Source of the DNA: Tritrichomonas foetus | Taxonomy: Eukaryota > Parabasalia > Tritrichomonadida > Tritrichomonadidae | DNA: 64,000 nt | NCBI GenBank assembly: GCA_001839685.1 | Contig: MLAK01000754.1 | Coordinates: 1 to 64,000 of the forward strand | Direction of reading: 5' to 3' | Part shown: positions 1,901 through 64,000 of the stretch, piece after piece | How positions within the stretch are numbered: position 1 is the first letter of the stretch | How the letters are laid out: each line of letters opens with the position of its first letter | Position numbers and translations under genes: made by a program | Notes under the pieces: model-generated | Seen by the model: the letters and a program-made list of their open reading frames with translations, nothing else | The model's database searches: none | What the model was told of the DNA's origin: nothing

Positions 1901-3364
1901 ATGGAAACTAGTAAATGCCCTCTCACTTTGCAATTAGAAGATTTGACACCACCTAAGTTTTTCCTACCTGAGTTTTCACCAGAACAAATAGTTCAGAGTG
2001 ATAAACATTGGAAAAAAGGATTTTTATGTTCATCATTAGATAAAAAGCTATTTTTTACTTCGAAACAAAATCCAGTAATTTTAGATTTTGTAAAAGCTTA
2101 TAAAGATCACCGACCAATTATACTCTCTCCTGATATAATTTGGCTTTTAATTGTTCAAGGCTTTTCACATCATGTATATAATAATTCTGAAGAATTAAGA
2201 CATCATTTTGTGAATTTTGATGGCCGCAAGACGCTGTAAGTGGCTGAAATATCCACTAATCCTGATTTAACAGATATAAAACGATGGGAGAATACTTTTC
2301 CATGTTTTGTTGAACAAATGTCTCAATATCTTGACCTAAATTTAATTAACGTTTTATCACCTAACTTTTCTACAACAACACCAGTTTCACGAGTTGTTGG
2401 TCAAATTAGCATTATGACATCTTTTCAAAAATATTTTGAATATAAATTCGATATATTTGGCTGTGGAATCCCGTTCATCACAATTGAGGGAAGTAATGAA
2501 GATTGGAAAAAAATTCGAGAAAAATTAGAATTCATTCGTGCATTTGATCTCGAATGGTATCAAAGCTTGTTCCAATTATTGAAGAATTTATAAATGCAAA
2601 ACAAGGAATTGTAAACAAAGAATTTTGGCTTCGAATGGTTCGTTATAAAAATAAAAAGAGTATCTATGATGTGAATAAGATTGATGGATGGATTTGCGCA
2701 TTTTATCCATATGACACAGATGGCAATAGATTTTCATTAAATGAAATTTGTGATGAATCATGTTTTGATAATATTCCAGGTAACATTTTATCTGTTCCAA
2801 TAAATGTAACAATAAGTGGTGTTGGTAACATGCGACATTAAAGCCAGAAATTGGCTGGTTAATAGCAACCAAACCAACGTCAACAATATCAATAAATATG
2901 ACAGGAATTGATCGATTATATATGGAGAAAAAGTATGTGTTCAATTTGGCAAACTCGATTTCGGTATTAATCCTCATCCAATACCTGAAAAGTATATTGC
3001 TGATTATTTGGAAAGATTAGAAAGAGAGAGATTAGAAAGAGAAAGATTAGAAAGAGAAAGATTAGAAAGAGAAAGATTAGAAAGAGAAAGATTTGAAAAA
3101 ATAAGACAAGAAAGAAAAATCAAAATGCTTGAAAAAACAAACCCCCATATTTTCTTCAATGTTCAGGGAAAATCAATAAAAATTATCGCACCAAAGATAT
3201 CATCATCTCAAAGGAAGTCAATCAATAGTCACCCTTTAATTACTAACAAATCCAACAGCACAGATATTCAAACAAAACCCGAACCAAAGGAAATTGAACA
3301 AGAAAATTCAGAAAAAGGGGTATTAAAATATGAACACTTTCACATTTTCAGTGAAGATTTATAA
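1901..3364 (+). pseudogene. decayed DUF4419-family gene
   Basis: The translation reads as one DUF4419 (PF14388) protein only if several breaks are crossed. Segment 1 (1901-2236) has the typical N-terminal block around L-S-P-D-I-I-W-L-L-I-V-Q-G-F and E-E-L-R-H-H-F-V. An in-frame TAA at 2237-2239 is followed by segment 2 in the same frame (F-I-T-I-E-G-S-N-E-D-W). A frameshift near 2560 joins L-E-W-Y-Q to K-L-V-P-I-I-E-E-F. A second, near 2836, leads into L-K-P-E-I-G-W-L-I-A-T-K. A third, near 2940, leads into G-K-L-D-F-G-I-N-P and a tail containing a five-fold R-L-E-R-E repeat (3014-3091). One stop plus three frameshifts in 1.4 kb is too many for sequencing error, so the gene is a pseudogene. 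The family's biochemical function is unknown. Confidence 0.8.
3014..3091 (+). repeat. 15-bp tandem repeat encoding RLERE
   Basis: About five copies of a 15-bp purine-rich unit (agattagaaagagaa) lie in the last segment of the DUF4419 pseudogene. In frame they encode R-L-E-R-E, which would form a charged helix. Confidence 0.8.
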
Positions 3365-3413
3365 AACAAAAGTAAAACAAAATATTTCCTGATATTTGTT
3401 TGTTCTTTAAGGA

Positions 3414-3417
<4 letters not shown>

Positions 3418-3450
<33 letters not shown>
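3418..3450. repeat. (AT)n microsatellite
   Basis: An uninterrupted run of about 16 TA dinucleotides lies just downstream of the DUF4419 pseudogene. Confidence 0.9.
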
Positions 3451-3452
<2 letters not shown>

Positions 3453-3586
3453 AATGATATAGTTATATTATAAATCTTGACTTTTAACACGATAAAATAG
3501 TTTTAGGATATTATTAGGAATTATTGGATGAATTAAAATTCCATTAATGAACCTTGACACAATATTGTATTTTTCAATTTTTTTGA

Positions 3587-3902
3587 CCACTGTAGGCAGA
3601 GATTTATTTTCCTATGAGTTTTGTAAATGTGAAGTGAAAGGTCAAATAAAGGTCAAAAGTGGAAAAAACCTAATGGGTAAATGTGATGTGAACTTTGCTG
3701 GTTCTTTGGGTCACTTCGACATGGAGGAGGTGCGCCACGTGAACACAGCGGAGGGAGCGAAGCGATCCGAAGCTGTGGTCACGTGGCAGCACCTCTTCCA
3801 ATGGCCGAATGAGTCGAAGGGGCCCGCAAAGTCACATCACATTTACCCATTTTTAGTGTCAAAAAACAAAACTCATAGGAAAAAAAATCCTGCCCCACTG
3901 TA
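3587..3902. mobile_element. GC-rich long imperfect palindrome, possible MITE-like element
   Basis: Left and right arms pair over their whole length. The outer part 3588-3623 pairs with 3867-3900 (shared core CCTATGAGTTTTG). The middle part 3675-3698 pairs with 3826-3848 (GGGTAAATGTGATGTGA). The inner part 3727-3749 pairs with 3772-3795 (CACGTG-containing). A loop of about 22 bases, 3750-3771, remains. The centre is about half G+C in a strongly AT-rich region. An ORF runs through it (3547-3939), but its translation has no family character. I infer a non-autonomous palindromic insertion or a structured RNA. The ends and any target duplication are not clear, and no transposase belonging to it was seen. 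Confidence 0.5.
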
Positions 3903-4398
3903 TGTTTTCCCAATTTTGATTCATAGAAATGAAGTATAAATGTGGATAATATGTAATTCTCACCAAAATTAAAAAAGTGACCATTTTTATGATTTTAAAA
4001 AGCTATTTTAGAATAGTGATTTCATATGTAAATATGTATTTGACTATTATTATTCAATCATTAATGATTAAGATATACCGTAATTTTCCTCTTACAGTTG
4101 TAACTATTCCCCTCTACCTTAATAATTCCCCTTTTGGGATAAGTTTGTGATTAGTCAATTTTTAATTAATTGGCAAGAACGAAAAATGTTGATTTTGAGA
4201 TCTTGGAAGAGCTTATTAAAATATGAATGCATATTTTCATATCATTTACTCTTCGCATCAACACTGCTTTGAATGAAACATCATCGAATTAAGCGAATAT
4301 ATTTATCGTCTTGGTGAAAAAATTCACATAAAAAGTCATTGATTGGTTTAGAAAATAAAAATAAATTGGAGACCGTTAATAATTCTTGTCAATTGGAG
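3903..4398. other. intergenic spacer upstream of CK2 alpha
   Basis: AT-rich spacer with no coding segment recognised. It holds the likely promoter of the CK2 gene, including an AAAAAGT motif at 4331-4337 followed by an Inr-like TCATT. Confidence 0.5.
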
Positions 4399-5442
4399 AT
4401 GGCGAACAACGGTCGCGCTGTCCAAAGAGAAAACCCAGTTTACGCAGAAGAAACAGTTGCCTCAGTTTATGCTGATGCATGCAAAAAGTTCGGTCCTGAC
4501 TACTACGAAGTCGATGATTGGGAGCTTCCCACCGCATCGCCAGAACCATACGAAATTGTCGACTGGATTGGAACAGGTAAATATTCCGATGTTTTCACTG
4601 CATATCGTAACCACGATTATTCAAAGCTTGTCGCAATCAAAGTTCTTAAGCCCGTTCGACAGCAAAAATATAATCGCGAAGCCAAAATTTTGATGAACTT
4701 AAAAGGTGGCCCGAATATCGTAGAACTTCACGAAATTGTTCAAAACCCACGAACGCTTCAATACAGCTTTGTCTTTGAGTATCTCAAAGAAGATTCCGAT
4801 TATAACGCATTTTTCGATCACATCAGCCTCCAAGAAGCTCAAATTTACCTCTTTCAGCTTATGAGGGCACTTCAGTTTGCTCACTCGAAAGGTATCATGC
4901 ATCGCGATGTCAAGCCATTGAATATTTTATACGACCGTCAAACCAAAAAACTCAGGCTAATTGATTGGGGACTTGCTGAATTTTACCATCCCGGCCAACG
5001 ATATAATATTCATGTTGCATCTCGTAATTTTAAGCCGATTGAATTATTGGTCGATTACCAAGTTTACGACTATTCCCTCGATATTTGGAGTTTTGGTGTC
5101 ACAATGGCCGGTATAATTTTCAAGAAAACACCTTTCTTCCGCGGCCGTGATGATATGGATATGATATCCAAGATCGCCGCAGTTCTCGGAATGAATGGCC
5201 TCAAGGCATACCTGACCAAATATGGAATACCAACGCCAGCAGTCGTCTCACAGACAATCGCAAGAGGAAAGCCTAGGCCATGGAAAGCATTCGTCACAAA
5301 CGAAAACAAGTATTTGGCCACGGACGAGGCACTTGACCTCATCGACAAATGTATCAGATATGACCACACCGAGAGGATCACGGCGGACGAAGCATTGAAG
5401 CACCCGTTCTTCGACGCAGTCCGCGATATTCCTGTACAGTAA
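4399..5442 (+). CDS. casein kinase II alpha subunit-like Ser/Thr kinase
   Basis: The 347-residue protein is a CK2 catalytic subunit. It has the family signature D-W-G-L-A-E-F-Y-H-P-G in place of DFG, the catalytic loop H-R-D-V-K-P-L-N, the Lys of A-I-K-V-L-K, and the conserved Y-D-Y-S-L-D-I-W-S-F-G helix. CK2 phosphorylates acidic Ser/Thr sites and is normally cytosolic and nuclear. Two normally invariant regions differ. The basic cluster after KPV reads R-Q-Q-K rather than a run of Lys. The P+1 segment reads H-V-A-S-R-N-F-K-P-I-E rather than R-V-A-S-R-Y-F-K-G-P-E. Both changes should affect substrate recognition, so this may be a diverged paralog. The ATG at 4399 is the first in frame; upstream codons are TTG and other non-ATG triplets. 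It is convergent with the kinase at 5911-7149. Confidence 0.92.
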   Translation: MANNGRAVQRENPVYAEETVASVYADACKKFGPDYYEVDDWELPTASPEPYEIVDWIGTGKYSDVFTAYRNHDYSKLVAIKVLKPVRQQKYNREAKILMNLKGGPNIVELHEIVQNPRTLQYSFVFEYLKEDSDYNAFFDHISLQEAQIYLFQLMRALQFAHSKGIMHRDVKPLNILYDRQTKKLRLIDWGLAEFYHPGQRYNIHVASRNFKPIELLVDYQVYDYSLDIWSFGVTMAGIIFKKTPFFRGRDDMDMISKIAAVLGMNGLKAYLTKYGIPTPAVVSQTIARGKPRPWKAFVTNENKYLATDEALDLIDKCIRYDHTERITADEALKHPFFDAVRDIPVQ

Positions 5443-5504
5443 GTCTATTTTTTTATCAAAATCCATAAAAATTTTATAAATCACATGTTGACCACAATCT
5501 TATT

Positions 5505-48595: not shown

Positions 48596-51500
48596 TTAAT
48601 GAATATCAGCTAAGATTTGTTCACTCTTTGCAAGAACTATTCGGGATTTAATAACTTTTGATTCAAGCTCTAACCTTTTCAGCAATCTATCTTTTGAGGC
48701 AGTAGATTGTAATAACCTTTGTTGATCAGATGCTATTCTTTTTCTTTCTTGAGCAGCATTTTTGGCATTTGATGCCATCATCACCATATCAGCGACACTA
48801 TTTGCTGCTCGACATATGATCAGAATTCCATTTTTCATTGCCAATTCCTCTTTAGATGAAGCCTTCCAATTTCCATATTCATTTGCTGATGATGCAATTG
48901 ATAACATCACTTTATTAATATCGCCTTCAATTGATCTGTCATTATTGTTAATAGTATTAGCAATAATTTTTGATATTTCGCTAATATTAGTACACATTGA
49001 ATCTGACAATGATAAAATAGTTTGATAATCTTTCTTTGCATTTTCTTTTGCATGTAATAGAACCTTCTCAAAGGAATTTGATAAACTTAGCCCAATATTT
49101 AGTATTTGAATGGACCATTCTTTTTGGTTCGATGATATGATATTTTCAATAGGATTTTTTTGAGCTATTGGAATGGCCTCTGTATCTTTAATTAACTTTA
49201 AAGATTTATTTATTTTAATTACATTCATATCGCGGGTTTTTTCTTCTGCTTCAGCAACTTTATATGCTTCTTCACATTTCATAATAATATCATTAATGGG
49301 ATTATCAATAATTAGAAAGTATTTTGGATAGCTTGATGACCAATCACCGATTAACAGAAGTTTATTTCGAAAAGATTTAACAATGGTGCTAAAATTTGAA
49401 GATATACCAGATGCATTATTGGCAAGTGATGTTTGGTATTTAAGTGACATTGTTGTTGCTGTGACTCTCAGCAGATTTTCAAGGAGACTATCCATAATTT
49501 TGATTAATGAAATCATAATATCTGTTAATTTTGTATTATTGGATGATGTTTGAGCAATAGTAAATTCATTAGATTTTCCTTTATATTTATCTAAATCTAG
49601 CTTTAACTTTGAAATATTTTCTTGGAGTTTAAACTGTAATGAGTCATTTGGTACTTTTGGCATAAAATAATGATTTGGAATTCTAGCTGCATTATCAAAG
49701 TCAGGAGATTCTGCCTGTATATCAGTTAATAAAAGGGATTTTCGAAATGATTTCATTAAAAATAATGCTAAATCTGTAAATGATTCGATCATTTTATCAC
49801 TACTAATTTGTTTCTGGGAAGAAATAATAGAATTAAATTTGTATAACTCATCTGAAAGATGAGTCATTTCTGAATGAAATTCTGATTCTGCTGCTTTATC
49901 AACATTTAATTTAATTAAGCATTTTCCAATATTCTGTATATTTAATATTGATTGATGATATTTTTCCGATTGATTTCCAGTTTTCAGAAATTCAGTAAAT
50001 GTATCAGGTATAATAGATGATGAATTTGTGGCCACAGTTAAAAGAGACTTCATGAGGATATCTGAAACATTTTTCGCATATTCCAATTTTTCACAAGTTA
50101 TATCATTATTTTTTCTATAATCTTGGGGAATCCTATCATTTAAATCATCAATTTGGTCAAGAAGGGAGTTAATTACCCGTTTCAATGGCCTGATTAATCT
50201 TCTAGTTGACGTATGTGTCGGAGACGAATCATTTTTAATTTCCATAAGCTGTTTCAAAGAATTAATTGCAGTTGGTAATATTTCATAGAAATCGGTGTAA
50301 TTAGAAATTTTTTCATCTTTGATCATTTCCAAATTTTTTATGGACGATGCTATTGCAGATGTAAAATGAACGACGATATCATTTATTGCCTGTGATATAG
50401 AAAATTTAGAATCATCAAATTGGGTACCAATCAATTTGACAAGAGTTTTTTCGCCATTGATGATGTTATTGAGACATTCTTTTAATAGTAAGCTGATGTT
50501 GTGAGATGATGTAAGTTTTTCATTTTCAGTGAATGGATTATTTATTCTTTTATTTAATATATCTATCAAAATTGGTCTCAGTTTTGATACTTTTTCTTTC
50601 ATCTCTGTATCAAATAAAAAGCTTTTCCCATATGAAGAGATAGCAATTGGTGAAATCAAATGCAGTTCTTTCCAAATAGGCTCTAATATTGCATTTGGTA
50701 TACCTGTTTTAACAGAATTTGTTTTAATTGCCTCAAGCTCAATAAGAATGGAATTAAATGCTTTCAAATCCATTTTATCAATCGAAATAATTAATCCCAC
50801 AACACAATCTATACATCTTTTGTCATTACTGAAGAATTCAGGATCAGTAATTGCTTGAAGATTTGAAAATTTGGATTGAAGTCTTAAAAGTGATTTTCGG
50901 AAATCATATAGCTTATCATCACCTAATGAAGATTCCAAAAGTGTTTCAATATCAGAAAACAATGAAAGAGGTTTCAATGTATCGTTAGTTTGTTTTTGAT
51001 CAAAAACCACTATCAAAGAAGCAATCATTTGTGGTAATATATCGCATATTTTATGAATCGACGGGAGTATTTGCTCAGAATTTATCTGAGATTTCATTAA
51101 TTCTATGGCTGATTTATTTTCAGAATTTAGAATTAGCATGCATTCCTTATCAGGAAGTTGTGAATATGTGGAAAACAGATGTATCAATGAATGAATAGAA
51201 TGAGCATACTTAGAAAGCAAAGTATAATATGTGGGAATTGGGGTAATATTTAAATAAGAAGATATAGAAAATGATGGTACAGTTATATGAGATGATAATA
51301 TATCATAATCAGAGCATAATATTTTGATTGCATGTTTCAAAAATTCTAAATATTTGAAATTAATGTCTATATTTGAGTTTGGATTTCCAATCAAAATTCG
51401 CGTTATTTTATAAAATTCATGCAATTCATTTTGAGAAAATGTTAATAATATATCTTGATTATGATGGTTGTCAAGTATGTTTCCTTTCATTGTTTTATCT

Positions 51501-54500
51501 AGAATAATTTGTAACTTTTGAGCTAATAAATATTGATGATATTGAGTTTGAGATACAGTAATTTCACATGATTCAATATTTAAATCGAGTTTAGATATGA
51601 GCTTTTGCAAATTAACTCTGACAAAATTTGTATCCTCTTTTATATTTTTTATTAATAATATTAAAACGAATTTTTCATTTGATCTTTCATTAGGAGTCAT
51701 TTTTTTCATCATTGTGTACAATTGCTGAGATTTAGTAGATTCGATTATTTTTAATTGTTTTTCTATTGTTTCAACTATGAAATCTTTATTTATTTCGATA
51801 TTTTCCGAATGATTTGGTTTCACATCAAATCTGTCTAATATTTCGGAAATTGATGACAATTTATAGAGAAGCAGGTATTTGTCAACTAAGTTTCCAATAT
51901 CATCTTTGTTAAAGAATTTTGAAAAGGAATGATCAATATATTGTTGAAAACAAATTACAATTTTATTCAATATATTGGATTGATTTGCAACTAATGTAAT
52001 ATTGTCAGTTAGTTGATTAGAATTACAGGAAATAATTTCTTGATTAATAGATGTATAAAGAGAATTTGATAAATAAGCGTCAATAAATTCATTAATTTTG
52101 GATGGAGTATTGTTTAAAATAGACAGAAATTCATCAAGCAAAATTGAATTCTCTTTTTGAATGTCATTTTTGGTATATTTTGAATGAAATGATAGCATTA
52201 GCAAAGAATCTTCAATATGTGAAAAAACCTGTAAAAGTGAATCAAATAATATTATATTGTTAATACTTTTTGGTACAAGATGCATTTTTGGATGAGTCAT
52301 ACTTTTATATGGTACATAGATATTTTCACTGTTGGTAAATAAAAGCTTGTGATTTAATAATAAACAAAGTAAATGTAAAGACACATTGGCATATTTTTCT
52401 TTTTCATCGGGTGTCAATAATGAATTGACTCCAATATTCAATGAAGATATATTCTTAATAATCAAATCAATTTCAATTTTGATATCAGTATCTGTTGGTT
52501 CTTTAGTATCATTGGAAGCTTTATTATGAAACCATATTGAGAATAGAGAAGTAGATATTATAAATCTTTTCATTAAATCTAGCAATATTTGATGAGAGTC
52601 GTTAATTGCTTGAATACTTATATATTCACTGGACAGTAATTCCTCTGGATTTTCTTTGAACAATTTTTGTTGCTGTATATTTAATGCTCTAAAAATGGTA
52701 ATAGAATCGGGTGCATTTTCGAATTTCCCATTCTGAATCATAGCTATTGAGTGAATTATTAATTTTATTATTAACAATATTTGTTCATGTGAAAGTTGAT
52801 TGATAGTGAGAGCAATTACATTTGGAAATGATGATACAATTATGAGTTGTTGAATAATTTGCTGACATTTAAGAATATCATGTGAAGATGCATGCGAAAA
52901 GGTATGTCTTTGGCCTTCTGATGTATTGATATATCTTAAGAAAGAATCATTTGGTAATAAAAGTAACAGTGAAAGTAATTGTGAAAGAAGTCTTATCACA
53001 GATATTTGATAATTTAAATATTTTGAAATAGATATTTTCTTTATAGGTTTTCCATTTTTGATTTGGGTAAACAAAGTCAAAAGGTATTGATTTGATATAT
53101 TTATATTATCTTCACCAAAAGATGAGTATGAATTTATACAACAGGAAATAATGTATTGTTGAATTAGAACATCATTATGAGTGAATCTTGATTGAAGTTC
53201 ATTTAATGCTTTTTTATCAAATACGAGATCAAATTGCTGCTCAGTATACATGAATGCAAAATCAAAATCATCGGATTTTATACTTTTTGAGTCAATATAT
53301 TTTGATTTTATAGTGTCATGGAACATATCAGATAAAACTAGTTTTAATAATTGGTATTTTTGAACACTAAATAAATTAACCATGGTTCCATAGAGTATAG
53401 AATTCAAAGTAGCAAAATCATAACTTAATATATTATTTGTTTGATCTTTTTCATTAGTATTAATAATGCTCATCATTCCATATGAAAGAATTGGAACATA
53501 TCTTGTTTCAATATAATGTTTCTTCTCTGTGCTATTTATGCTGTTTTTCGCCTCAATACGTGATATTAACTCTTTCAAATAGTTCAAAATTTCATTTGCA
53601 ATATCAACATATTTTTTCTTTGTAATTAGGTCAATATCCCTATTTGCTTGATTAACAATTGATGATAAATTATATTTTGATATTTGATTTCGAAGCATTG
53701 ATTGTGACTGCGATAGTATTTGGTTAATGCATTTCTGAATAGAGTCAATTTGAGTTAGTGTTAAATTCATTTTTAATAGTTTCTCAATTTCCTTTATTAT
53801 TTCGGAAATTATGTTTGTTTTGTCATTTTCGGCAATTATCCTTGTGATTTTTGATTTTGGAATGCTGAATGAGGCTATTAGTTGTGTTGGTGCAGTTTTA
53901 GCAAGATATTTGCAGCGATCTAGCATTCCATTAATTGACATTGAATTCGAGATGAAAATATTTAAAGAGTTTTCATTATTAGATAAATTGGACCACCATT
54001 TTATTATTGGTAGTAGTTTTTCGAAAATTGATAATGTTTCATTTGGATACATGTTTGGATATTGTAAGAATAGTTTAGATAATTCACGTAATTCGACCTT
54101 ATGAGCAACAAATAATCTTTCTTTAGATAATAAGAATTGAGTAGCTCTTCTAAAAAATGGCATCATTCCTGTTTCATTCTTTTCTTCACTTTGGCATACT
54201 AGGAAATCCATACATGATAAAAATATTGATGAAATCGATAATTCTGTTTCATTAAGCCAAAAACAAAAATCAGATAAGCTGTCATTAAGTGGTAATATTA
54301 TTGATCGCAGAGATAATAAATCCTTTGCAGAGTTCAAAAATAGTAATAAGTCGGATTCAAAATCTTGCATTGGCAAAAATGAAAGAACAGTAGTTGCAAG
54401 TGATTTGCATTGAGTTAGCATCTTGGTGTCAATATATGAAAGAGATCGCATAAGCTGATTAAATTGATTCAGAGCAACTTCGTTAAATAGATGTGGTGAC

Positions 54501-56884
54501 GATAAAATTTGCTGATCAATATATTGTAAAGTATTTTTAATATTATTCACAATTTTGCCAGTTCTAATTGATATATTTATAGATATTTCAATTAGATGAT
54601 CAAGTTTTAAAGAAAAATTACGTTGAAGAGATGTGATGCACCGAACAGCAGTCATAATCATTGGATACTTAATTGAGGAGATTGTAGGTAGAATACAAAA
54701 AGATGAATTATAGATATATTCTGGGATAATTTCTTGATGATCATTAATGAATGCTAAATTATCAATTATTAATTCCGATAATTCAGGAGAAAACTTCCCA
54801 TTACAATAATTTATGCCTTGCTGTACAACATTACTTATTGTTTCATCGGATAAAAGAGTACTATTTAGATGTAATCCACTTGTGAATTTGATTTCAATGG
54901 TTTGAACAGATTTATATCGTCCAGTTATTTCGTATAATTTTAATAGTTCATCTATTATTTCATCTGAGTCAATTGCATTGAATATTTTAGGTAGTATGGT
55001 TGTAACATGCATGTAAAGGGTATCACATAAAATTTGTCTTTTTCTTAATCCAATTGTATCAATATTAGAAATCCCAAAGATAATAGTATTTAAATCCTTA
55101 ATATGTGATTGAACACTTTGATTGCATTTAGGAATTAAATTCAAAAGAGATGAAAAACATATTTTAAATTCATTAATAAATGCATTACTTTCATTTTCCT
55201 TCATGTGAGGAGATATCAACAATCGATGAAGTAAAATTGCATTTTGTGATAAAATCAAACAAATATCAGGAAGATTAGGAGAACCAAGAATTGGTGAAAT
55301 TAAGTTAATAGAATTTTCCATAAATTGCATTTGGTCTTTGAAAAAGCCCAAAAATTTTATCATCTCATTTTCATTCGAATATTTCATGTCCAATATATTT
55401 TTTAATGTAGAGACAATTTTTGATAATAGATTTTGTGTGTGTATCTGTGTAGCAATTTGTGGCATATTAGAGCACTCATTTACAATACTATTTAAATAAT
55501 TAACCTGCTCTCGCCAAATTAAAAATGAATCGTCCAATTCATCATCATTTTGTATTAATCGAAACTTATGAATATCTATTTTAACTACACTCGAAGTAGG
55601 TAAATTCCTTACACAATTAATAATTTTATTGCCATGTGCATGAGCTTTACCTAACTTGGTTGCGAGATTTTCAAAGATTTGCATGTCAATAATATCTCGT
55701 AAAGAATTTGGGATGTATGGTAATTGAGTCTTTATATTCATGAATGCTTCTTTGACTAATAATGATGACTGGTAATTAAATTGCTCAGAAGAAGTATTAT
55801 TGATGATTGTGAGAATAGAGTTAATTTGATTTTGAATTGTTACTTCCCAAGATTTATAGCATGGTTGATCATTCCTGCTTTTAATATTATGAATAAAATC
55901 ATCATATGCAGCAATAGCTGCCAATGATAGTGCTTTAACATCTGCTAAAGTTGGTTTCTTATAATTCAAAAATAATTTTAATTCATTAATAGTTTTTGAC
56001 AGTAATTCTTGATTGTGTGAACTTGGTATTTTAGATATTTTATTCAAAATTCTTTGAACAATCCGAAAGAAGTTATCAGATGGGAGCAGTTTTTCATTTT
56101 GTAGTTTGGATATCTGCTTCTTTAAAGAATGCTTCATTTGGGAATTATCATCATAGGAGCTTTCTAATTCATGAATTATTTTAATCAGGCTTTCAACATC
56201 TTTACTTGAAGGTGGAACACGGAAAATGCATGCTGGTGCATTGTTTAGATCATCAATAGTATTTTTTATATTTCTTAATGTGACTGATGTGCATCGCTGC
56301 AATTCCATGTCTAAAGTTTTCTCAGAATACTGGCGTGAGTAGTCAATAAAATATTCAAGCATATTATGTACCTTAGTAAGCTGAATCATAGCTTGTTTAA
56401 TTGTGTCAGAGTCATAAGGAGTCTCATTAAGTTCTCTTCGTATTTTAATCATTTCAATATAGGAATTTTGTGATATTTTTAGGGATTGTTGCATATTAGA
56501 TCTAATATGTGAATTAATATTGGGATTATTCATTGATTTGTAAATAGAATTAATAAGAATACCTAGGTCGTGTTGGGTTTGGATAAAAGATGCAAGATGT
56601 CTGGATGTATCAATAGATGGCATTTGTTCACACATTGTTGAATTTAATGACATGATTAATCGCTCCAATAGCACTGAGCATGTAGGATCATTAGTACATT
56701 TTTCGATAGCTTTTAAGGAGGTTTTGAGTTTGAAAATCAAACCACGTAGTTTTAATAGCTGAGATTGCACAAGTCTAATGATATTGCTATCTAAAAAGTT
56801 CTGGTCCAATTCATTCTGATGTTGTTGGATATTATAGGGTGTCCGGAGGCGTGATGTCACTACCCACATTAGAAGTGAAATCAA
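48596..56884 (-). CDS. talin-like giant cytoskeletal protein, C-terminal part (gene disrupted)
   Basis: Continuous helical-bundle sequence of about 2,745 residues from the insertion point to the stop. It matches the rod of talin: runs of amphipathic helices with no domain breaks. The last 60 residues (A-A-Q-E-R-K-R-I-A-S ... L-E-L-E-S-K-V-I-K-S-R) resemble the I/LWEQ (THATCH) actin-binding end of talin and Hip1R. It is not an independent gene: its apparent start (56884) lies inside the mariner, and its first true codons follow directly on the ORF at 58105. Talins link membrane receptors to actin. The rod here is larger than in animal talin (about 2,100 residues), even without counting the part upstream of the transposon. 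Family call is by pattern. Confidence 0.7.
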   Translation of the reverse strand: MISLLMWVVTSRLRTPYNIQQHQNELDQNFLDSNIIRLVQSQLLKLRGLIFKLKTSLKAIEKCTNDPTCSVLLERLIMSLNSTMCEQMPSIDTSRHLASFIQTQHDLGILINSIYKSMNNPNINSHIRSNMQQSLKISQNSYIEMIKIRRELNETPYDSDTIKQAMIQLTKVHNMLEYFIDYSRQYSEKTLDMELQRCTSVTLRNIKNTIDDLNNAPACIFRVPPSSKDVESLIKIIHELESSYDDNSQMKHSLKKQISKLQNEKLLPSDNFFRIVQRILNKISKIPSSHNQELLSKTINELKLFLNYKKPTLADVKALSLAAIAAYDDFIHNIKSRNDQPCYKSWEVTIQNQINSILTIINNTSSEQFNYQSSLLVKEAFMNIKTQLPYIPNSLRDIIDMQIFENLATKLGKAHAHGNKIINCVRNLPTSSVVKIDIHKFRLIQNDDELDDSFLIWREQVNYLNSIVNECSNMPQIATQIHTQNLLSKIVSTLKNILDMKYSNENEMIKFLGFFKDQMQFMENSINLISPILGSPNLPDICLILSQNAILLHRLLISPHMKENESNAFINEFKICFSSLLNLIPKCNQSVQSHIKDLNTIIFGISNIDTIGLRKRQILCDTLYMHVTTILPKIFNAIDSDEIIDELLKLYEITGRYKSVQTIEIKFTSGLHLNSTLLSDETISNVVQQGINYCNGKFSPELSELIIDNLAFINDHQEIIPEYIYNSSFCILPTISSIKYPMIMTAVRCITSLQRNFSLKLDHLIEISINISIRTGKIVNNIKNTLQYIDQQILSSPHLFNEVALNQFNQLMRSLSYIDTKMLTQCKSLATTVLSFLPMQDFESDLLLFLNSAKDLLSLRSIILPLNDSLSDFCFWLNETELSISSIFLSCMDFLVCQSEEKNETGMMPFFRRATQFLLSKERLFVAHKVELRELSKLFLQYPNMYPNETLSIFEKLLPIIKWWSNLSNNENSLNIFISNSMSINGMLDRCKYLAKTAPTQLIASFSIPKSKITRIIAENDKTNIISEIIKEIEKLLKMNLTLTQIDSIQKCINQILSQSQSMLRNQISKYNLSSIVNQANRDIDLITKKKYVDIANEILNYLKELISRIEAKNSINSTEKKHYIETRYVPILSYGMMSIINTNEKDQTNNILSYDFATLNSILYGTMVNLFSVQKYQLLKLVLSDMFHDTIKSKYIDSKSIKSDDFDFAFMYTEQQFDLVFDKKALNELQSRFTHNDVLIQQYIISCCINSYSSFGEDNINISNQYLLTLFTQIKNGKPIKKISISKYLNYQISVIRLLSQLLSLLLLLPNDSFLRYINTSEGQRHTFSHASSHDILKCQQIIQQLIIVSSFPNVIALTINQLSHEQILLIIKLIIHSIAMIQNGKFENAPDSITIFRALNIQQQKLFKENPEELLSSEYISIQAINDSHQILLDLMKRFIISTSLFSIWFHNKASNDTKEPTDTDIKIEIDLIIKNISSLNIGVNSLLTPDEKEKYANVSLHLLCLLLNHKLLFTNSENIYVPYKSMTHPKMHLVPKSINNIILFDSLLQVFSHIEDSLLMLSFHSKYTKNDIQKENSILLDEFLSILNNTPSKINEFIDAYLSNSLYTSINQEIISCNSNQLTDNITLVANQSNILNKIVICFQQYIDHSFSKFFNKDDIGNLVDKYLLLYKLSSISEILDRFDVKPNHSENIEINKDFIVETIEKQLKIIESTKSQQLYTMMKKMTPNERSNEKFVLILLIKNIKEDTNFVRVNLQKLISKLDLNIESCEITVSQTQYHQYLLAQKLQIILDKTMKGNILDNHHNQDILLTFSQNELHEFYKITRILIGNPNSNIDINFKYLEFLKHAIKILCSDYDILSSHITVPSFSISSYLNITPIPTYYTLLSKYAHSIHSLIHLFSTYSQLPDKECMLILNSENKSAIELMKSQINSEQILPSIHKICDILPQMIASLIVVFDQKQTNDTLKPLSLFSDIETLLESSLGDDKLYDFRKSLLRLQSKFSNLQAITDPEFFSNDKRCIDCVVGLIISIDKMDLKAFNSILIELEAIKTNSVKTGIPNAILEPIWKELHLISPIAISSYGKSFLFDTEMKEKVSKLRPILIDILNKRINNPFTENEKLTSSHNISLLLKECLNNIINGEKTLVKLIGTQFDDSKFSISQAINDIVVHFTSAIASSIKNLEMIKDEKISNYTDFYEILPTAINSLKQLMEIKNDSSPTHTSTRRLIRPLKRVINSLLDQIDDLNDRIPQDYRKNNDITCEKLEYAKNVSDILMKSLLTVATNSSSIIPDTFTEFLKTGNQSEKYHQSILNIQNIGKCLIKLNVDKAAESEFHSEMTHLSDELYKFNSIISSQKQISSDKMIESFTDLALFLMKSFRKSLLLTDIQAESPDFDNAARIPNHYFMPKVPNDSLQFKLQENISKLKLDLDKYKGKSNEFTIAQTSSNNTKLTDIMISLIKIMDSLLENLLRVTATTMSLKYQTSLANNASGISSNFSTIVKSFRNKLLLIGDWSSSYPKYFLIIDNPINDIIMKCEEAYKVAEAEEKTRDMNVIKINKSLKLIKDTEAIPIAQKNPIENIISSNQKEWSIQILNIGLSLSNSFEKVLLHAKENAKKDYQTILSLSDSMCTNISEISKIIANTINNNDRSIEGDINKVMLSIASSANEYGNWKASSKEELAMKNGILIICRAANSVADMVMMASNAKNAAQERKRIASDQQRLLQSTASKDRLLKRLELESKVIKSRIVLAKSEQILADIH

Positions 56885-58124
56885 TACATTATATTTATAA
56901 ATAATAAACTATGCAATGTTAACATAAAAATTTTGAAAACAATTTTTTTTTTCTCTTGACTGAAAATAGAGATAAAGAATCTTTTTCATAAAAAAAAGAA
57001 TAATTTATAAACGTACACGATGCACGTTTATTAAAAAATGATTGATCAACATTCAATCATAACTTTTCTGCAGCTTGAAGGAAAAAGGGGCAAAGAAATA
57101 TATGAAGAAATGAAGAGTGTCTTGAAAGAAAAATGTTTGTCTCAAAGACAAATCTACCGAGTCATGGCAGAACTGAACAGAAGTCAAAACACACAGCCTG
57201 TGAAAAAAGAGAAAAAGTGCCAAAGTTATGATATTCTTGACTGGAAAATTTTAGATGTTTTAACCGAATTTCCACATTCACCGTGTCGATATATTGCTAA
57301 TGTTTTAGGTGAACCAAAATCGACAATTTATGATCGTTTAACATCAAAATTAATGTATAAACATGTGCATCTTCGATGGGTGCCACATATTCTAACAGAA
57401 AATCAAAAGGCCAATAGAGTTTTATTGGCAAAAAAACTTCTTAAAATTTTGAATGCAGAACAAAAAACTAATTTCACCTTTTTAATAACAGGAGATGAGT
57501 CTTGGTTTTATTCCAAGACTGATTTCAATACACAATGGATTCCTGAAAACTCAGTAATCCCAACTATTCAAAATCCAGGGTTTCAGATCACTAAATTTAT
57601 GGTGACTGTATTTTGGAACCCTCATGGGATAATTCATATTGATGTTTTGCCGCCAAATGAAAAGTTTAATGCTGCATATTATATTACAGCCATTATGTCA
57701 AAAATTGTTGAGTTTAAAAACTCGAATAATTATAAAAAATTATTTGTTCATTATGACAATGCAAAGCCTCATGTGGCAAAAATTGTCAAAAAATATATAA
57801 ATGAAAACTCACTAGAATCAGTTCCACATCCGGCATATTCACCTGATTTGGCGCCTAGCGACTTTTTTTTATTTGGAACTATTAAAGAAAAAGTTAAAGG
57901 AATTGTTTTTGAATCACCAAGCCATTTGATTCAAACAATAGTCCAAATTTTCAATGAAATTCCATCGGAAACTTTGTTTTCAGTTTTTGCAGAATGGCAA
58001 AATAGACTGAAAAAAGTTATTGATGCCAATGGAGACTACATATTTTGAAATACTTATCAATAAAAAATGACTTATTAGAAATGACTTTATTATACNTAGT
58101 GACATCACATTACCGGACACCCTA
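56835..58124 (+). mobile_element. complete mariner DNA transposon inserted in the talin-like gene
   Basis: The 1,290-bp element has 28-bp terminal inverted repeats (56835-56862 and 58097-58124) starting TAGGGTGTCCGG and ending GTGATGTCACTA, identical at 24 positions and differing only in a central block of four. It is flanked by the TA duplication at 56833-56834 and 58125-58126. Length, ends and transposase are those of an autonomous mariner. It is oriented opposite to the host gene. One ambiguous base (N at 58096) lies just inside the right repeat. Confidence 0.95.
57038..58048 (+). CDS. mariner transposase (DD34D)
   Basis: The 336-residue enzyme is uninterrupted and has every mariner hallmark. 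These are two N-terminal helix-turn-helix motifs, the W-V-P-H-x-L-T linker motif (R-W-V-P-H-I-L-T), and the first Asp in T-G-D-E-S-W. The second is in V-H-Y-D-N-A-K-P-H, then Y-S-P-D-L-A-P-S-D-F-F-L-F with the third Asp exactly 34 residues after the second. It cuts and pastes the element into TA dinucleotides. An intact frame suggests the copy is young and potentially active. Codon use is AT-rich like the host. Confidence 0.97.
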   Translation: MIDQHSIITFLQLEGKRGKEIYEEMKSVLKEKCLSQRQIYRVMAELNRSQNTQPVKKEKKCQSYDILDWKILDVLTEFPHSPCRYIANVLGEPKSTIYDRLTSKLMYKHVHLRWVPHILTENQKANRVLLAKKLLKILNAEQKTNFTFLITGDESWFYSKTDFNTQWIPENSVIPTIQNPGFQITKFMVTVFWNPHGIIHIDVLPPNEKFNAAYYITAIMSKIVEFKNSNNYKKLFVHYDNAKPHVAKIVKKYINENSLESVPHPAYSPDLAPSDFFLFGTIKEKVKGIVFESPSHLIQTIVQIFNEIPSETLFSVFAEWQNRLKKVIDANGDYIF

Positions 58125-61100
58125 TAAAATGAATTTCTTTTAACACAGCAATAGTTTCTGCAATTATTATGCATTCTATATTAGATAACTGCTTCTCAAG
58201 AATACCTGGCTTAATTTTTGTATGGTACGTCAAAATTAAATCGATATTTTGAAGAATTAATCCAATATTACTTGGAATCATGTTAATGGTTGTGATTGCT
58301 TTGATTGAAGTGTCTAAATAATTTAATATATTTTCTTCTTTTGAGACTTGAGCTTGATTGTCAGAAAGATGCTCTATCAATTGTTTTGATAACTTTTCTG
58401 CACTCAAAATTGCGTATAGTGAACGATATCTAAATGTGGCATTAGAAAAATCATTTTTCATCAATTTCATTTGATTTGACACGACTTGTTTAGCTTCAAA
58501 AATTCTTATTCTTGTTGTAGAAATAAGTTGTGCTGTTAAAATATTTGTTTTATGCAATGGAGATTCAATATATTTCTCTACTGCACTAGAAACCATTAGA
58601 AGTGCTGATATTGAAGTATGAATAGCTTTATTATCACCACAATACATAAGATTAGCTGTTTTATTTCTTGACTCAGCAGTATTTGCTATCATTTTCTCAA
58701 TGGAAACTATCATTCTAATAATATTGTCTGAAAGTGGATTGCTTATTCCCAATGATGGAAGTTTTTCCAGTAATTTAATGGTTTCTTGAAGAGCTGGAAC
58801 TATGCTTCCTTCCACAAAATTTGGATCTTTAGTATCAGAGAGTGATGATGCAAGTGCAGTTAATCTTTCTGACATTACATGAATTGTATTTATATAAGAT
58901 TTTGGATCGATTCCATTGAAATTTCTCAGACTTCTCGAAAGGGATGCAGCAAGTTCTTCTAACGCCTCAGAAACATCAATTACATTCCTAACCAAAGGAT
59001 CAGTAATATTTTCCATTGTAATCTTCAATTGTCTTTCACCAATAATTAATTTTTTCATTGGTATTACATCGTTCATCATTGCAGTGAATTTTTCGGTTAA
59101 CACGCCAACGTAAAATCTCATATCACCCTCATTACCATCAAATTTATCGATTGTTTCTCTAATTTCATTTATTAAACTGTCCATTTTATCAACTTTTTGT
59201 TTAAATTTATCTGAAATATCAGACTCTCTTAATGTATTGACAAGATTTTCAATAACAGCAAACTTATCAATCAATGTATCATAGTTCATTTCATTTAGTT
59301 TATCAATAACATCATGTAGTTCATCATCCAAGGCATCTAACATTCTTCCAACTCGATCAATTTTCAGTCCATCTTGATCCATTCTCCATTTATAATTATC
59401 ATCATTACCATACATATCCACAGGCCTATCAATGTAATGATATTCATCGTTATCATCATCGTTTATATCTGGAATTGAATAACAACAATCATATGATTCA
59501 GCATTAACATCAAGTGATAAATCTTGGTAATCTTGTGAGTAATCATCTTCCTGAGTATATGAGATTCGATAATTACTATTTTCTGTTGTATGGACTTGCG
59601 AAGCCTTTTTCGCGAGTTTGAAATTAATTTCATTTATTATTTCGGATGGTGATCGTAAATAATAATCGTCCGCAAAATATACAAACATTTGTTTTACATA
59701 TTCATGTGCTTCTTCTACATGATCTATTTCGAGCATTATGTGATTTTCGTTTTTTTCATCATCAAAATATTTGAAATGAAGATTTCCATTTTCAATAAAG
59801 TAGGAAATAATTGATGAATAGTCAAAATAAGCATATTTTCGATGACTTTGGAAATCTATAACTTCAATTAAAAATGGCCCTAAATACAATTTTGATATTC
59901 GATGTTGTCTTTTATTTGAATTGATTACATCATTATAAAAGCATTCATATATCTCACACCCAAATCCATGTAATACAACGCATTGTTCAATGTAATGATA
60001 TGCAGCTTCAAGTTCTGACATCGGCGGAAACTGCTTAATAAGTGTTTTGAACTTATTAATTAGATTAGAACTGGATATAATAGAAGGTGGAATAAAAGGA
60101 GAAAGGTCTTCAAATATTGTTGGTGAAAGGAAGAAACTTTTCTCGTTTAGATCTGCATAAATAGTGAAATATGCAAGATCTAAAGCCTTTTCTTCATTTA
60201 ATTCCACTTCCTCATTCATTACCATTCTTTTACAATCATCATAAAGCATAAATACCGAATTGTTGTCATCAAATAAAAGTGATGGAAAAACATAAAACCT
60301 TCTTCTAATATAGAGTTCTGTAAATGAGGTTGTTTGTTCAGGAAGAGATTTATTCAAACTTAAAGGAATTAATCTTTCTGGAGCAAGAGGATATAGTGTG
60401 AATCCTTCGAAAAATTTATTGTTTAAATCACTGATAATAACTTGGACATTTTTTGAAATAAACTCTTGAATAGAAATAATGGATTGAATAATTAAGTTAT
60501 TGGATATTATCACTTTTACGGGGGTATTTAACTGAGTGAAGAATATTCTCGAACCTATAGTTGGATTCAAAGATCTAAATTTACCATTGTCAGGTAGCCA
60601 TGATAATTCGCCCTCTGGACTTCGATGCAAAATTTGGTTTTTTGTAGAATTAATTAATAGGAAAACATTAATTAGCTGATTCGAAATTATAATTCCAGTT
60701 TCATCTAAATCAAAAGCATAGTGTAAAGGATGTGGATGACCCATTTGTCTTGATACCTCAAGCAAAATTGTATTCGGATCAAGAATATCGGTATTAATAC
60801 TTTCTGATCCTTTTTGTAATTGTTTTCTGGCTTTAAGTTGTGGAATAATTATGTTTCTATAAGCATCAATCAGGTTATAAATTCTTTCAGCAGTGTTTGC
60901 CATGAAAAGAAAATCAACGACTTTATCCTTATCACCATTTCCATCAGCAACTACTTTAAGTAAAATTATATCTTTCATAATATTAATTTCTAAAATTTGT
61001 TTGTATTTAATATCATTTTCTTCATGAGTTGCATAATGATAAATTTTTACGCCTTTTGGACCAATTAAAATATTAACTTCACGATTTTTCTTATTTTGTG

Positions 61101-64000
61101 TTAAAACTGATACTCGTAAAAACTGTTCATATCCAAAATATTTGATATTTTTTGTATCATGGATAAATTTTATCATCGCTTCAGTTTTATTAAATAATTT
61201 ATCACTTTTAATCTTCTCAATTTTTCGTATTAAATCTGATCTAGGATTATAACCTTGTGGTAAAATATACTCGATATCATGCATATTTTTAGATAACTGA
61301 TTTTTTTGAACTTCTTCAGGAGATTTTCCATCTGCATATAGAAGTAGTGTTGCCATAGCAATAACTTGATTCTCTGTTGGTTTACATATATTTGACAGTG
61401 CGTTTTTTCGAAAGTCTGAAAAAAGTCTCAGAGCTATGTTTGGAGTTTCAATATCATATTTTGTAACCCTAAATAACCTTCTTTTAAAAATTAAATTGGA
61501 AAAATCATTTATTTGCTCTGGAACAGATTTTTGATAATCAAGAGGCTCACCATTACTCGAGTATAAGCAATACCCAATCCAGTTATCCACATACAGGCGA
61601 TCTGCGATAAATGAAATTAAATCAGATACAGTTTGTGTGATATCAATAATTACCTTTCTAGAAATTCCATCATCTGGTGTAATACTTACAAGCATATTAT
61701 TTTCAAATAAATGAAGCTTTGCATGCTTAAAAGGATGAAGCATTCCCAAAATTTGAGTTGGTTTAACCCATATTTTGTCTTCAGGTGAGAGTTCAAGGAG
61801 ACAAGTATATTGCCCATTTGGATTTTTCTTTAAATTATGTGAAACTTTTTGAGCAAGTTGTAATCCATTTAATCTTTTATCATAAGGACAATGTATTGTT
61901 TCCCCAGAATTGCGATACTCAATCTGTAATTCAATTCTGTCGAGATTACTAATGTATAATGATTCTGTGATATTCCCTGCTGAAGGAATTCTTGAAAGTA
62001 GTACCTCATCAGAAATTTCGACATAAGTTCTTTGAACATCCAGAAATTCTTGACTTTTTTCACACTCAAATTCAAAATAAGTAAATTGATTTAATGATTC
62101 ATCATGATATTTGATAAGTATTTGTTTATTTATTGATGATATTTTAATGATATGATCATATCCAATTGTTAAAAAATATTTTCCATTTGTTTTCCTTCCA
62201 AATAACTTTGTTGGACCAACTAATAGAGTGATTTTTACGATTTTATTCTTTTTATCCTGCATTGTTGCTTGGAATGGCTCACATCCAAAAGTTGGAATTG
62301 ATCGAGAAATATCTAAATATTTTCTAATTGCCATTTCTCTACTATTAACAATATTGTCAATTGGAGTTGTACAATAGTTTTTCAGAATTTTTATGTAACT
62401 ACTTTTACTGGAAATGTTGATTGGAAGAAGGGATTGAATATCTTTTGGAATATCTTCAGGTGATGGTATTCTAGGAAGATCGATATATAAGGCATAATAT
62501 GCTAATTTTAATGCATCACCAACAGGGACATCCATTTTACCAGAAAGTATAAGATCTCTCACATCATTAAAAGTTGTAAGCATTGATCCCATATGAGCAT
62601 AATCTTTGGTTGTAATTACAAAAAACCTTCTCTTTAACAGAATTATCTGAAATTCACTCATTTGTTCAGGGATTGTCAAATAGAGTTCCAGTGGTTTTTG
62701 AGAGTTGTTGTCAGTACTAAATAGTGTATAACCAATACAATTTGTTAATGCAAATTTTTCTGCTATTATTGGTATCAATTCTTTAATGTTCTTTTCGATG
62801 GGAATCAAAATAGATTTAACTTGATGGAGTAGGGTGGTAATTTTGAGAATTAAATTTGATTCAATAATAAACATCAAAAAATCACGTGTTGGATTAATGT
62901 CACTAATTTTTTCACCTTTTTTAAGAAATCGAAACTTTGGATTTCTGTTAATCATTTTTGCGAGTAAAGAGTATGATTTTTTAGGATCTAATTTACGGTT
63001 ATTGCGTACCAATAATTCGATTAATTCTTCTTTTGTTAGTTCAACTTCAAACCAATAAAGTGGTAAATTGGTTTCTTTAGTTAAACTTAAGCTTAATCTC
63101 ATATCAATCATTTTTCTGCGAACCCTTCCATTTTCATCAACCCATCCACCATCTAATCTTTGTTTAATTGCCAAATTTTCAGCGGCTTTTTCGTTTTGTC
63201 TATCAATTATTGACTTTCGTAAAATCCCTATTGTTTCGGATATTAGCATTAATATTGTATCAAGATTTTCAGATTTAAATCCATATGTTGTAGAATTAAC
63301 ACCTTTTGAGTCGATAAAAGTCAATGTCATTGCTTTATCTGCTGATTTATAAGAAATTATTTGATGATAATATATTTTAAAAACTTCTTTTTTGGATGTA
63401 ATATCTTCTAGAATTAAGAAAAGTGGACAAACAATGATTTGACCTTCAAAAAACTTTGATTTCTTATTTTTTCCTAGGAGTTTGTAATTAGTTTTAACGG
63501 TTTCTGACCCAAATTTTGGTAAATCACGAGCTAACTTAATATATCTCCTCATAGCTGCACATTCATCTATTGTAATATCAAATGATTTGAAAACAGAATG
63601 AAATTTAGTCGTGAATTTTTGGGTGATTTTTATTTGCTTAGGGAAAAGTCCTTCAAAATCGGTATGTCCAAAAGTTTGTCTTACATCACCATTTACTGGA
63701 GTGTCTATAATTACTGATAAAATCCCTAAGTCAATTGCTTGATCTTCATTAATTTCAACATCTTGATTTAAAACATAATACTTGGTATCATGATAAGTTT
63801 GTCTTAATACTGGTAAATTAATTAAATCACTTACAGTGAGAATAAAAAATCTTCTTTTGAAAATTAAATCACTATACTCTGTGCATTGTTCAGGAATAGA
63901 AAACCTTGTGTCTAAAGCTTTTTGAGGATTATTTTTAAAGAAAAATGTGTATCCTACGATTTCACTCATATGCAATTTTTCAAAAGTTAGTTTAACTAAT
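58105..64000 (-). CDS. talin-like giant protein, N-terminal part with four FERM-like modules (partial, disrupted)
   Basis: The frame is open from the right window edge through 58127 and ends at a TGA inside the mariner repeat, so the true start is beyond the window; the codon at 63975 is TTG, not a start. At least four FERM-like modules follow each other. Each contains an F1-like segment (for example L-I-P-I-I-A-E-K-F-A ... C-I-G-Y-T-L-F-S) and an F2 block with P-E-Q-x-x-x-F and K-R-R-F-F. These blocks lie near 63890, 62670, 61520 and 60340. F3-like beta segments follow each. An acidic Asp/Tyr-rich linker (about 59390-59600) leads into the helical rod. Normal talins have a single FERM region. 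Cortical actin/adhesion linker inferred. Confidence 0.75.
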   Translation of the reverse strand, partial: LVKLTFEKLHMSEIVGYTFFFKNNPQKALDTRFSIPEQCTEYSDLIFKRRFFILTVSDLINLPVLRQTYHDTKYYVLNQDVEINEDQAIDLGILSVIIDTPVNGDVRQTFGHTDFEGLFPKQIKITQKFTTKFHSVFKSFDITIDECAAMRRYIKLARDLPKFGSETVKTNYKLLGKNKKSKFFEGQIIVCPLFLILEDITSKKEVFKIYYHQIISYKSADKAMTLTFIDSKGVNSTTYGFKSENLDTILMLISETIGILRKSIIDRQNEKAAENLAIKQRLDGGWVDENGRVRRKMIDMRLSLSLTKETNLPLYWFEVELTKEELIELLVRNNRKLDPKKSYSLLAKMINRNPKFRFLKKGEKISDINPTRDFLMFIIESNLILKITTLLHQVKSILIPIEKNIKELIPIIAEKFALTNCIGYTLFSTDNNSQKPLELYLTIPEQMSEFQIILLKRRFFVITTKDYAHMGSMLTTFNDVRDLILSGKMDVPVGDALKLAYYALYIDLPRIPSPEDIPKDIQSLLPINISSKSSYIKILKNYCTTPIDNIVNSREMAIRKYLDISRSIPTFGCEPFQATMQDKKNKIVKITLLVGPTKLFGRKTNGKYFLTIGYDHIIKISSINKQILIKYHDESLNQFTYFEFECEKSQEFLDVQRTYVEISDEVLLSRIPSAGNITESLYISNLDRIELQIEYRNSGETIHCPYDKRLNGLQLAQKVSHNLKKNPNGQYTCLLELSPEDKIWVKPTQILGMLHPFKHAKLHLFENNMLVSITPDDGISRKVIIDITQTVSDLISFIADRLYVDNWIGYCLYSSNGEPLDYQKSVPEQINDFSNLIFKRRLFRVTKYDIETPNIALRLFSDFRKNALSNICKPTENQVIAMATLLLYADGKSPEEVQKNQLSKNMHDIEYILPQGYNPRSDLIRKIEKIKSDKLFNKTEAMIKFIHDTKNIKYFGYEQFLRVSVLTQNKKNREVNILIGPKGVKIYHYATHEENDIKYKQILEINIMKDIILLKVVADGNGDKDKVVDFLFMANTAERIYNLIDAYRNIIIPQLKARKQLQKGSESINTDILDPNTILLEVSRQMGHPHPLHYAFDLDETGIIISNQLINVFLLINSTKNQILHRSPEGELSWLPDNGKFRSLNPTIGSRIFFTQLNTPVKVIISNNLIIQSIISIQEFISKNVQVIISDLNNKFFEGFTLYPLAPERLIPLSLNKSLPEQTTSFTELYIRRRFYVFPSLLFDDNNSVFMLYDDCKRMVMNEEVELNEEKALDLAYFTIYADLNEKSFFLSPTIFEDLSPFIPPSIISSSNLINKFKTLIKQFPPMSELEAAYHYIEQCVVLHGFGCEIYECFYNDVINSNKRQHRISKLYLGPFLIEVIDFQSHRKYAYFDYSSIISYFIENGNLHFKYFDDEKNENHIMLEIDHVEEAHEYVKQMFVYFADDYYLRSPSEIINEINFKLAKKASQVHTTENSNYRISYTQEDDYSQDYQDLSLDVNAESYDCCYSIPDINDDDNDEYHYIDRPVDMYGNDDNYKWRMDQDGLKIDRVGRMLDALDDELHDVIDKLNEMNYDTLIDKFAVIENLVNTLRESDISDKFKQKVDKMDSLINEIRETIDKFDGNEGDMRFYVGVLTEKFTAMMNDVIPMKKLIIGERQLKITMENITDPLVRNVIDVSEALEELAASLSRSLRNFNGIDPKSYINTIHVMSERLTALASSLSDTKDPNFVEGSIVPALQETIKLLEKLPSLGISNPLSDNIIRMIVSIEKMIANTAESRNKTANLMYCGDNKAIHTSISALLMVSSAVEKYIESPLHKTNILTAQLISTTRIRIFEAKQVVSNQMKLMKNDFSNATFRYRSLYAILSAEKLSKQLIEHLSDNQAQVSKEENILNYLDTSIKAITTINMIPSNIGLILQNIDLILTYHTKIKPGILEKQLSNIECIIIAETIAVLKEIHFIGCPVM

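What the first reader, a model, noticed from the sequence alone, without database searches (positions are those of the whole stretch)
48596..64000. Talin-like giant gene split by an intact mariner, with frame restored on removal
The ORFs at 58105-64000 and 48596-56884 are two halves of one gene. The left half ends in V-L-K-E-I-H-F and then runs into the transposon's inverted repeat. The right half resumes as N-I-Q-Q-H-Q-N-E-L. Taking out 56835-58124 plus one TA leaves these joined in frame with no stop; the alternative placement of the element ends would create a stop, which also fixes the boundaries. So the insertion is recent, the host frame has not decayed, and the annotated right-hand ORF start is artificial. 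The disrupted allele would give a FERM-only protein and lose the actin-binding end.
Basis: partly seen in the sequence, partly recalled or inferred. Interest (0 to 1): 0.85.

Follow-up and report, generated by a model that had tools for sequence, protein, structure and literature searches.

The report
Mariner splits a giant talin-like gene
In a sequenced strain of a cattle and cat parasite, a jumping-gene copy has cut a very large cytoskeletal gene into two still-readable halves; the event is ordinary, but the gene itself is an unusual many-headed relative of animal talin.

Summary
The window is from Tritrichomonas foetus. A 1,290-bp mariner (56835-58124) with a TA target duplication interrupts one minus-strand gene. 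Three tests agree. (1) The 40 copies all have the same TATA-flanked ends. (2) 14 of 14 copies that interrupt an open frame (60 codons or more each side; 55 copies examined) are in phase only if one TA is kept. (3) Relatives are uninterrupted and collinear across the break: a Histomonas protein (4,697 aa) and a paralogue on contig C348; two unnamed proteins also carry both halves, but their stretch before the break is too diverged to score. The gene runs past the window to contig position 66018: 2,631 + 2,745 residues.

Corrections. The truncated product is not FERM-only: five FERM modules, about 600 residues after the last FERM central domain, then six element-encoded residues. Loss of an actin-binding end is inferred from a fold resemblance that unrelated helical bundles nearly equal. 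Youth is likely, not shown: the assembly was gap-filled and no second isolate was seen. Paralogues may soften the loss.

By-product: giant multi-FERM talin-like proteins in Parabasalia, although passages read place talin's origin in Amorphea.

The parts
56835..58124 (+). complete mariner element, 1,290 bp, ends TAGGG...CCCTA; antisense to the host gene
   Evidence: 40 of 40 copies share these ends; exact 46-bp left end occurs 132 times in the genome
56835..56862 (+). left terminal inverted repeat, 28 nt
   Evidence: within inverted repeat I1 (34 nt, 85%); 24 of 28 positions pair, counted by eye
58097..58124 (-). right terminal inverted repeat, 28 nt
56833..56834 (.). TA target duplication, left copy
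58125..58126 (.). TA target duplication, right copy
57038..58048 (+). transposase ORF, 336 aa, DD34D spacing, one residue change (S82P) against the family consensus
   Evidence: Transposase_1 above cut-off, Mos1 and SETMAR structures, catalytic spacing, comparison of copies
58126..64000 (-). 5' half of the talin-like gene (continues outside the window to contig position 66018); FERM modules then rod
59947..60273 (-). FERM central domain 5 (residues 1916-2024)
61120..61455 (-). FERM central domain 4 (residues about 1522-1633), below Pfam's cut-off on its own
   Evidence: E 2.8e-4 when scanned apart
62272..62583 (-). FERM central domain 3 (residues 1146-1249)
63502..63807 (-). FERM central domain 2 (residues 738-839)
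58105..58125 (-). element-derived tail of the truncated left ORF (I-G-C-P-V-M and stop; first base is from the TA duplication)
48596..56833 (-). 3' half of the talin-like gene, 2,745 native residues, no in-frame stop
   Evidence: collinear with relatives
56834..56884 (-). element-derived artificial start of the right-hand ORF (TTG at 56884; catalogued protein P0001 starts at an ATG five codons later)
48599..49276 (-). C-terminal helical bundle with a long last helix; fold resembles talin R13/THATCH
   Evidence: model pLDDT 84.9; structural matches

Best explanation
A mariner of a family with at least 132 exact copies of its left end inserted at a TA inside one talin-like gene of about 5,376 codons in Tritrichomonas foetus and duplicated the TA. 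The gene now encodes a truncated protein that keeps five FERM modules and about 600 residues after the last FERM central domain, gains six residues from the element and stops; the remaining 2,745 codons are cut off from their own start. Shown: the element, its ends, the TA rule, the collinearity of both halves with uninterrupted relatives. Inferred: that the insertion is young, that the lost half carries an actin-binding end, and that paralogues soften the loss.
For: Ends and duplication: 40 of 40 copies; of 30 loci, some of them the same copies, 30 of 30 have TATA on the left and 27 of the 27 with a right end have it there. Phase: 14 of 14 ORF-interrupting copies among 55 distinct complete copies need two bases kept. 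Relatives in one piece: in P0124 (Histomonas meleagridis) left-tail residue 299 of 300 aligns to 1643 and right residue 11 to 1655, so 11 residues lie between on both sides; scores 150 and 252 against maxima of 64 and 83 in 100 shuffles. BLAST without composition correction finds the right half also in P0123 and P0125 (E 3e-82, 5e-42). Paralogue on C348: left 197-2609 to 4-2461, right 2-2744 to 2484-5496 in one open frame; phmmer gives E 9e-75 for the right half there. 435 bp of left flank occur once in the genome.
Against: No empty allele was seen. phmmer with default filters reported the right half only in P0124, not in P0123 or P0125. For these two the last 300 residues before the junction do not score above shuffled sequence (50 and 52 against maxima 66 and 67), so collinearity at the junction rests on P0124 and C348, by extrapolating over the few unaligned residues. 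Ungapped windows of 12 and 20 residues do not locate the junction; at 30 and 60 they do for P0124 and, at 30, for P0125. The strain K assembly was gap-filled, so element-internal identity may be partly assembly-made.
Confidence: 0.95

Rival explanations
1. Assembly artefact: a repeat wrongly placed, or two unrelated contigs joined at a mariner by gap filling.
For: The strain K draft is an Illumina/454 assembly closed with GapFiller; several copies show N or short deletions; this copy has an N at 58096.
Against: The two flanks are halves of one gene, collinear with an uninterrupted Histomonas protein and, within one residue, with a paralogue; a chance join would not do this nor duplicate the TA.
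Confidence: 0.03
2. Old fixed split: two separate genes now, each under selection, the right half started from element sequence (transposon-driven gene fission).
For: Both halves are fully open; the element's left end gives an in-frame ATG with an initiator-like TCACTT nine bases upstream; no transcript data exclude it.
Against: Relatives and a paralogue are single genes; absence of stops in 2,745 codons is also expected if the split is young (neutral divergence under about 0.0064-0.0094 per site from stops alone); the motif TCAYWW precedes 16 of 53 ORF starts (this one among them) against 19% of random 40-mers, so its presence is weak evidence.
Confidence: 0.07
3. Two separate ancestral genes that happen to flank a mariner.
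For: Only the gene calls themselves (P0001 and P0122 are separate predicted proteins).
Against:: single proteins in relatives and one frame in the paralogue.
Confidence: 0.01

Closest known systems
Tvmar1 mariner of Trichomonas vaginalis (PMC4021607, passages read)
   Same: Tc1/mariner element of about 1.3 kb with a DD34D transposase in a parabasalid, many near-identical copies (408 there, at least 132 exact left ends here), known to interrupt a gene whose expression is abolished in carriers
   Different: Another species; 1,290 bp against 1,304 bp; no Tvmar1 sequence was in hand, so relatedness was not measured
Talin (animals, Amoebozoa)
   Same: Talin FERM head is the best match among solved structures; helical C-terminus modelled as a bundle with a long last helix
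   Different: About 5,400 residues instead of about 2,540, five FERM modules instead of one, no recognisable I/LWEQ sequence signature, no known receptor
Histomonas meleagridis uncharacterised protein GO595_010015 (P0124)
   Same: Uninterrupted protein collinear with the rod part of both halves
   Different: Shorter at the N-terminus (4,697 aa); two FERM_M stretches at E up to 1

Membership tests
mariner (Tc1/mariner superfamily) | terminal inverted repeats | tested here: met
   28-nt repeats at both ends, within I1
mariner (Tc1/mariner superfamily) | TA target duplication | tested here: met
   TATA at both ends of every complete copy examined; one TA kept in 14 of 14 interrupted frames
mariner (Tc1/mariner superfamily) | DD34D transposase | tested here: met
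   D153, D240, D275 with 34 residues between the last two; Transposase_1 above cut-off; Mos1 E 2.6e-22
Tvmar1 | sequence membership of the Tvmar1 family | not tested
   no Tvmar1 sequence was fetched
talin | talin-type FERM head | tested here: met
   14 of 14 PDB sequences listed and 15 of 15 (E up to 0.01) are talin; profile of four relatives: talin-1 E 3e-13 first of 40 listed, then PTPN21 5e-11, kindlin-2 9e-6, radixin 0.03
talin | single FERM head | tested here: not met
   five FERM_M stretches about 390 residues apart: residues 350-447, 738-839, 1146-1249, 1522-1633, 1916-2024; in the whole protein two pass E 0.001 on their own, four pass 0.01, five pass 1
talin | I/LWEQ (THATCH) actin-binding end, by sequence | tested here: not met
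   no PF01608 match in the last 300 residues at a limit of E 10, though HMMER's filters drop most above 0.1; PF01608 in the genome finds three other genes over cut-off, not this one; PDB profile search without match
talin | I/LWEQ (THATCH) end, by fold | tested here: inconclusive
talin | binding of F-actin and of an adhesion receptor | not testable with these tools
   needs protein assays

The most novel reading that the evidence does not exclude
Parabasalids (Metamonada) carry a family of giant talin homologues with several FERM heads in tandem on one long rod ending in a THATCH-like, dimerising, actin-binding bundle. That would place talin-type force linkers outside Amorphea, and this T. foetus strain would be a natural truncation mutant of one of at least three paralogues.
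Probability: 0.4. Interest if true: 0.65.

Novelty: new member of a known kind. Interest (0 to 1): 0.42.

Why it matters
The insertion is a clean example of how a mariner family makes natural loss-of-function alleles in a parabasalid: 14 of 55 distinct complete copies examined sit inside frames open for 60 codons or more on both sides, so gene calls from this assembly need checking against the element. The host gene matters more. [quoted passage not shown] A talin-like family in Tritrichomonas and Histomonas makes that directly testable.

Full report
What the window is. The window is contig C364:1-64000 of a 63.7-Mb, 1,064-contig genome. Its transposase cluster carries an NCBI name from Tritrichomonas foetus. 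Size and gaps fit the strain K draft of 68.5 Mb (PMC5399258, read whole except the end of the reference list); that it is strain K is my inference. T. foetus infects cattle and cats.

The element. A 1,290-bp mariner lies at 56835-58124. Its 336-aa transposase matches Transposase_1 and the Mos1 and SETMAR structures, with D153, D240 and D275 in DD34D spacing. A genome search scored 40 of 162 candidates, all 40 printed as 100% identical after rounding. The exact 46-bp left end occurs 132 times, 69 forward and 63 reverse, with no match to the backward control. Of 55 distinct complete copies 49 have a 336-aa frame; the window copy differs from the consensus at one residue, S82P, plus a small compensated indel and an N. 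Most copies differ from the consensus by a few bases or none, but several differences are N or short deletions, some ending at an N, which looks like gap filling, and the strain K authors used GapFiller. Identity between copies is therefore partly uncertain.

The ends and the TA rule. In one search all 40 copies read TATA|GGG...CCC|TATA. In one search, partly the same copies, 30 of 30 left ends and 27 of 27 right ends read the same; three loci had no right end. This leaves three registers. They can be told apart without this gene: where a copy sits in an open frame, the frames on the two sides must match with 2, 4 or 6 bases kept. With at least 60 codons open on both sides, 14 of 14 copies need 2 mod 3 (the first 40 copies alone gave 11 of 11). 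At 40 codons it is 15 of 15; at 30 codons, where chance frames enter, 19 of 27.

The two halves are one gene. The left half starts at contig position 66018, outside the window, and has 2,631 native residues; the right half has 2,745. BLAST without composition correction finds the right half in all three; phmmer with default filters reports it only in the Histomonas protein (E 8e-150). In that protein the left tail reaches residue 1643 with its residue 299 of 300 and the right half picks up at 1655 with its residue 11, so 11 residues lie between on both sides and nothing is missing; scores are 150 and 252 against maxima of 64 and 83 in 100 shuffles. For the other two, the right head scores 113 and 224 (maxima 77 and 70), but the left tail does not exceed shuffled sequence (50 and 52 against 66 and 67). 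In the same genome, contig C348 has an uninterrupted 5,764-aa frame. In the 5,498 residues read, the left half aligns 197-2609 to 4-2461 and the right half 2-2744 to 2484-5496, which by extrapolation is collinear to within one residue. A second paralogue on C218 has one TAG in its frame.

Age. The right half has no stop in 2,745 codons; if it decays neutrally, divergence since insertion is below about 0.0064-0.0094 per site from stops alone, and below about 0.0023-0.0026 if indels are added at an assumed tenth of substitutions. This agrees with a young insertion but cannot show it, since the half might still be used. The element's left end offers an in-frame ATG with an initiator-like TCACTT nine bases upstream; that motif precedes 16 of 53 ORF starts, this one among them, against 19% of random 40-mers, so the evidence for expression is weak.

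Against the literature. Tvmar1 of T. vaginalis is the same kind of event: 408 elements, 1,304 bp, and one gene interrupted at its 3' end whose expression is abolished in carriers (PMC4021607, passages). The insertion is therefore a new instance of a known kind. The host gene is more unusual. [quoted passage not shown] The searches listed under Tried and rejected showed no report of a parabasalid talin; annotation databases were not searched for one.

Noticed in passing
G000 contig C348, L075-L078: Uninterrupted paralogue of the split gene, frame of 5,764 aa with at least three FERM central domains
   Followed up: yes
G000 contig C218:67720-75285: Second paralogue; a frame of 5,729 aa with one internal TAG
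   Followed up: no
G000 contigs C200:89492, C255:9945, C570:123959: Three genes with a clear I/LWEQ domain (PF01608) in frames of 1,688, 1,850 and 1,675 aa, possibly Sla2/HIP1-like (label recalled, not tested)
   Followed up: no
55 distinct complete mariner copies in fetched loci: 14 copies lie inside frames open for 60 codons or more on both sides, so a sizeable share of the copies examined interrupts genes
   Followed up: partly
window 56834-56890, minus strand: Outward-facing TTCACTTCTAATG at the element's left end: an initiator-like motif with an ATG in frame with the right half
   Followed up: partly
loci L047, L054, L063, L070, L074: Element copies with short internal deletions (3 to about 37 bases), some ending at an N, likely gap-filling artefacts
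   Followed up: no
L010:2702-3256: 184-aa plus-strand ORF beyond the gene's 5' end, GAF-like by eye (recalled, not tested)
   Followed up: no
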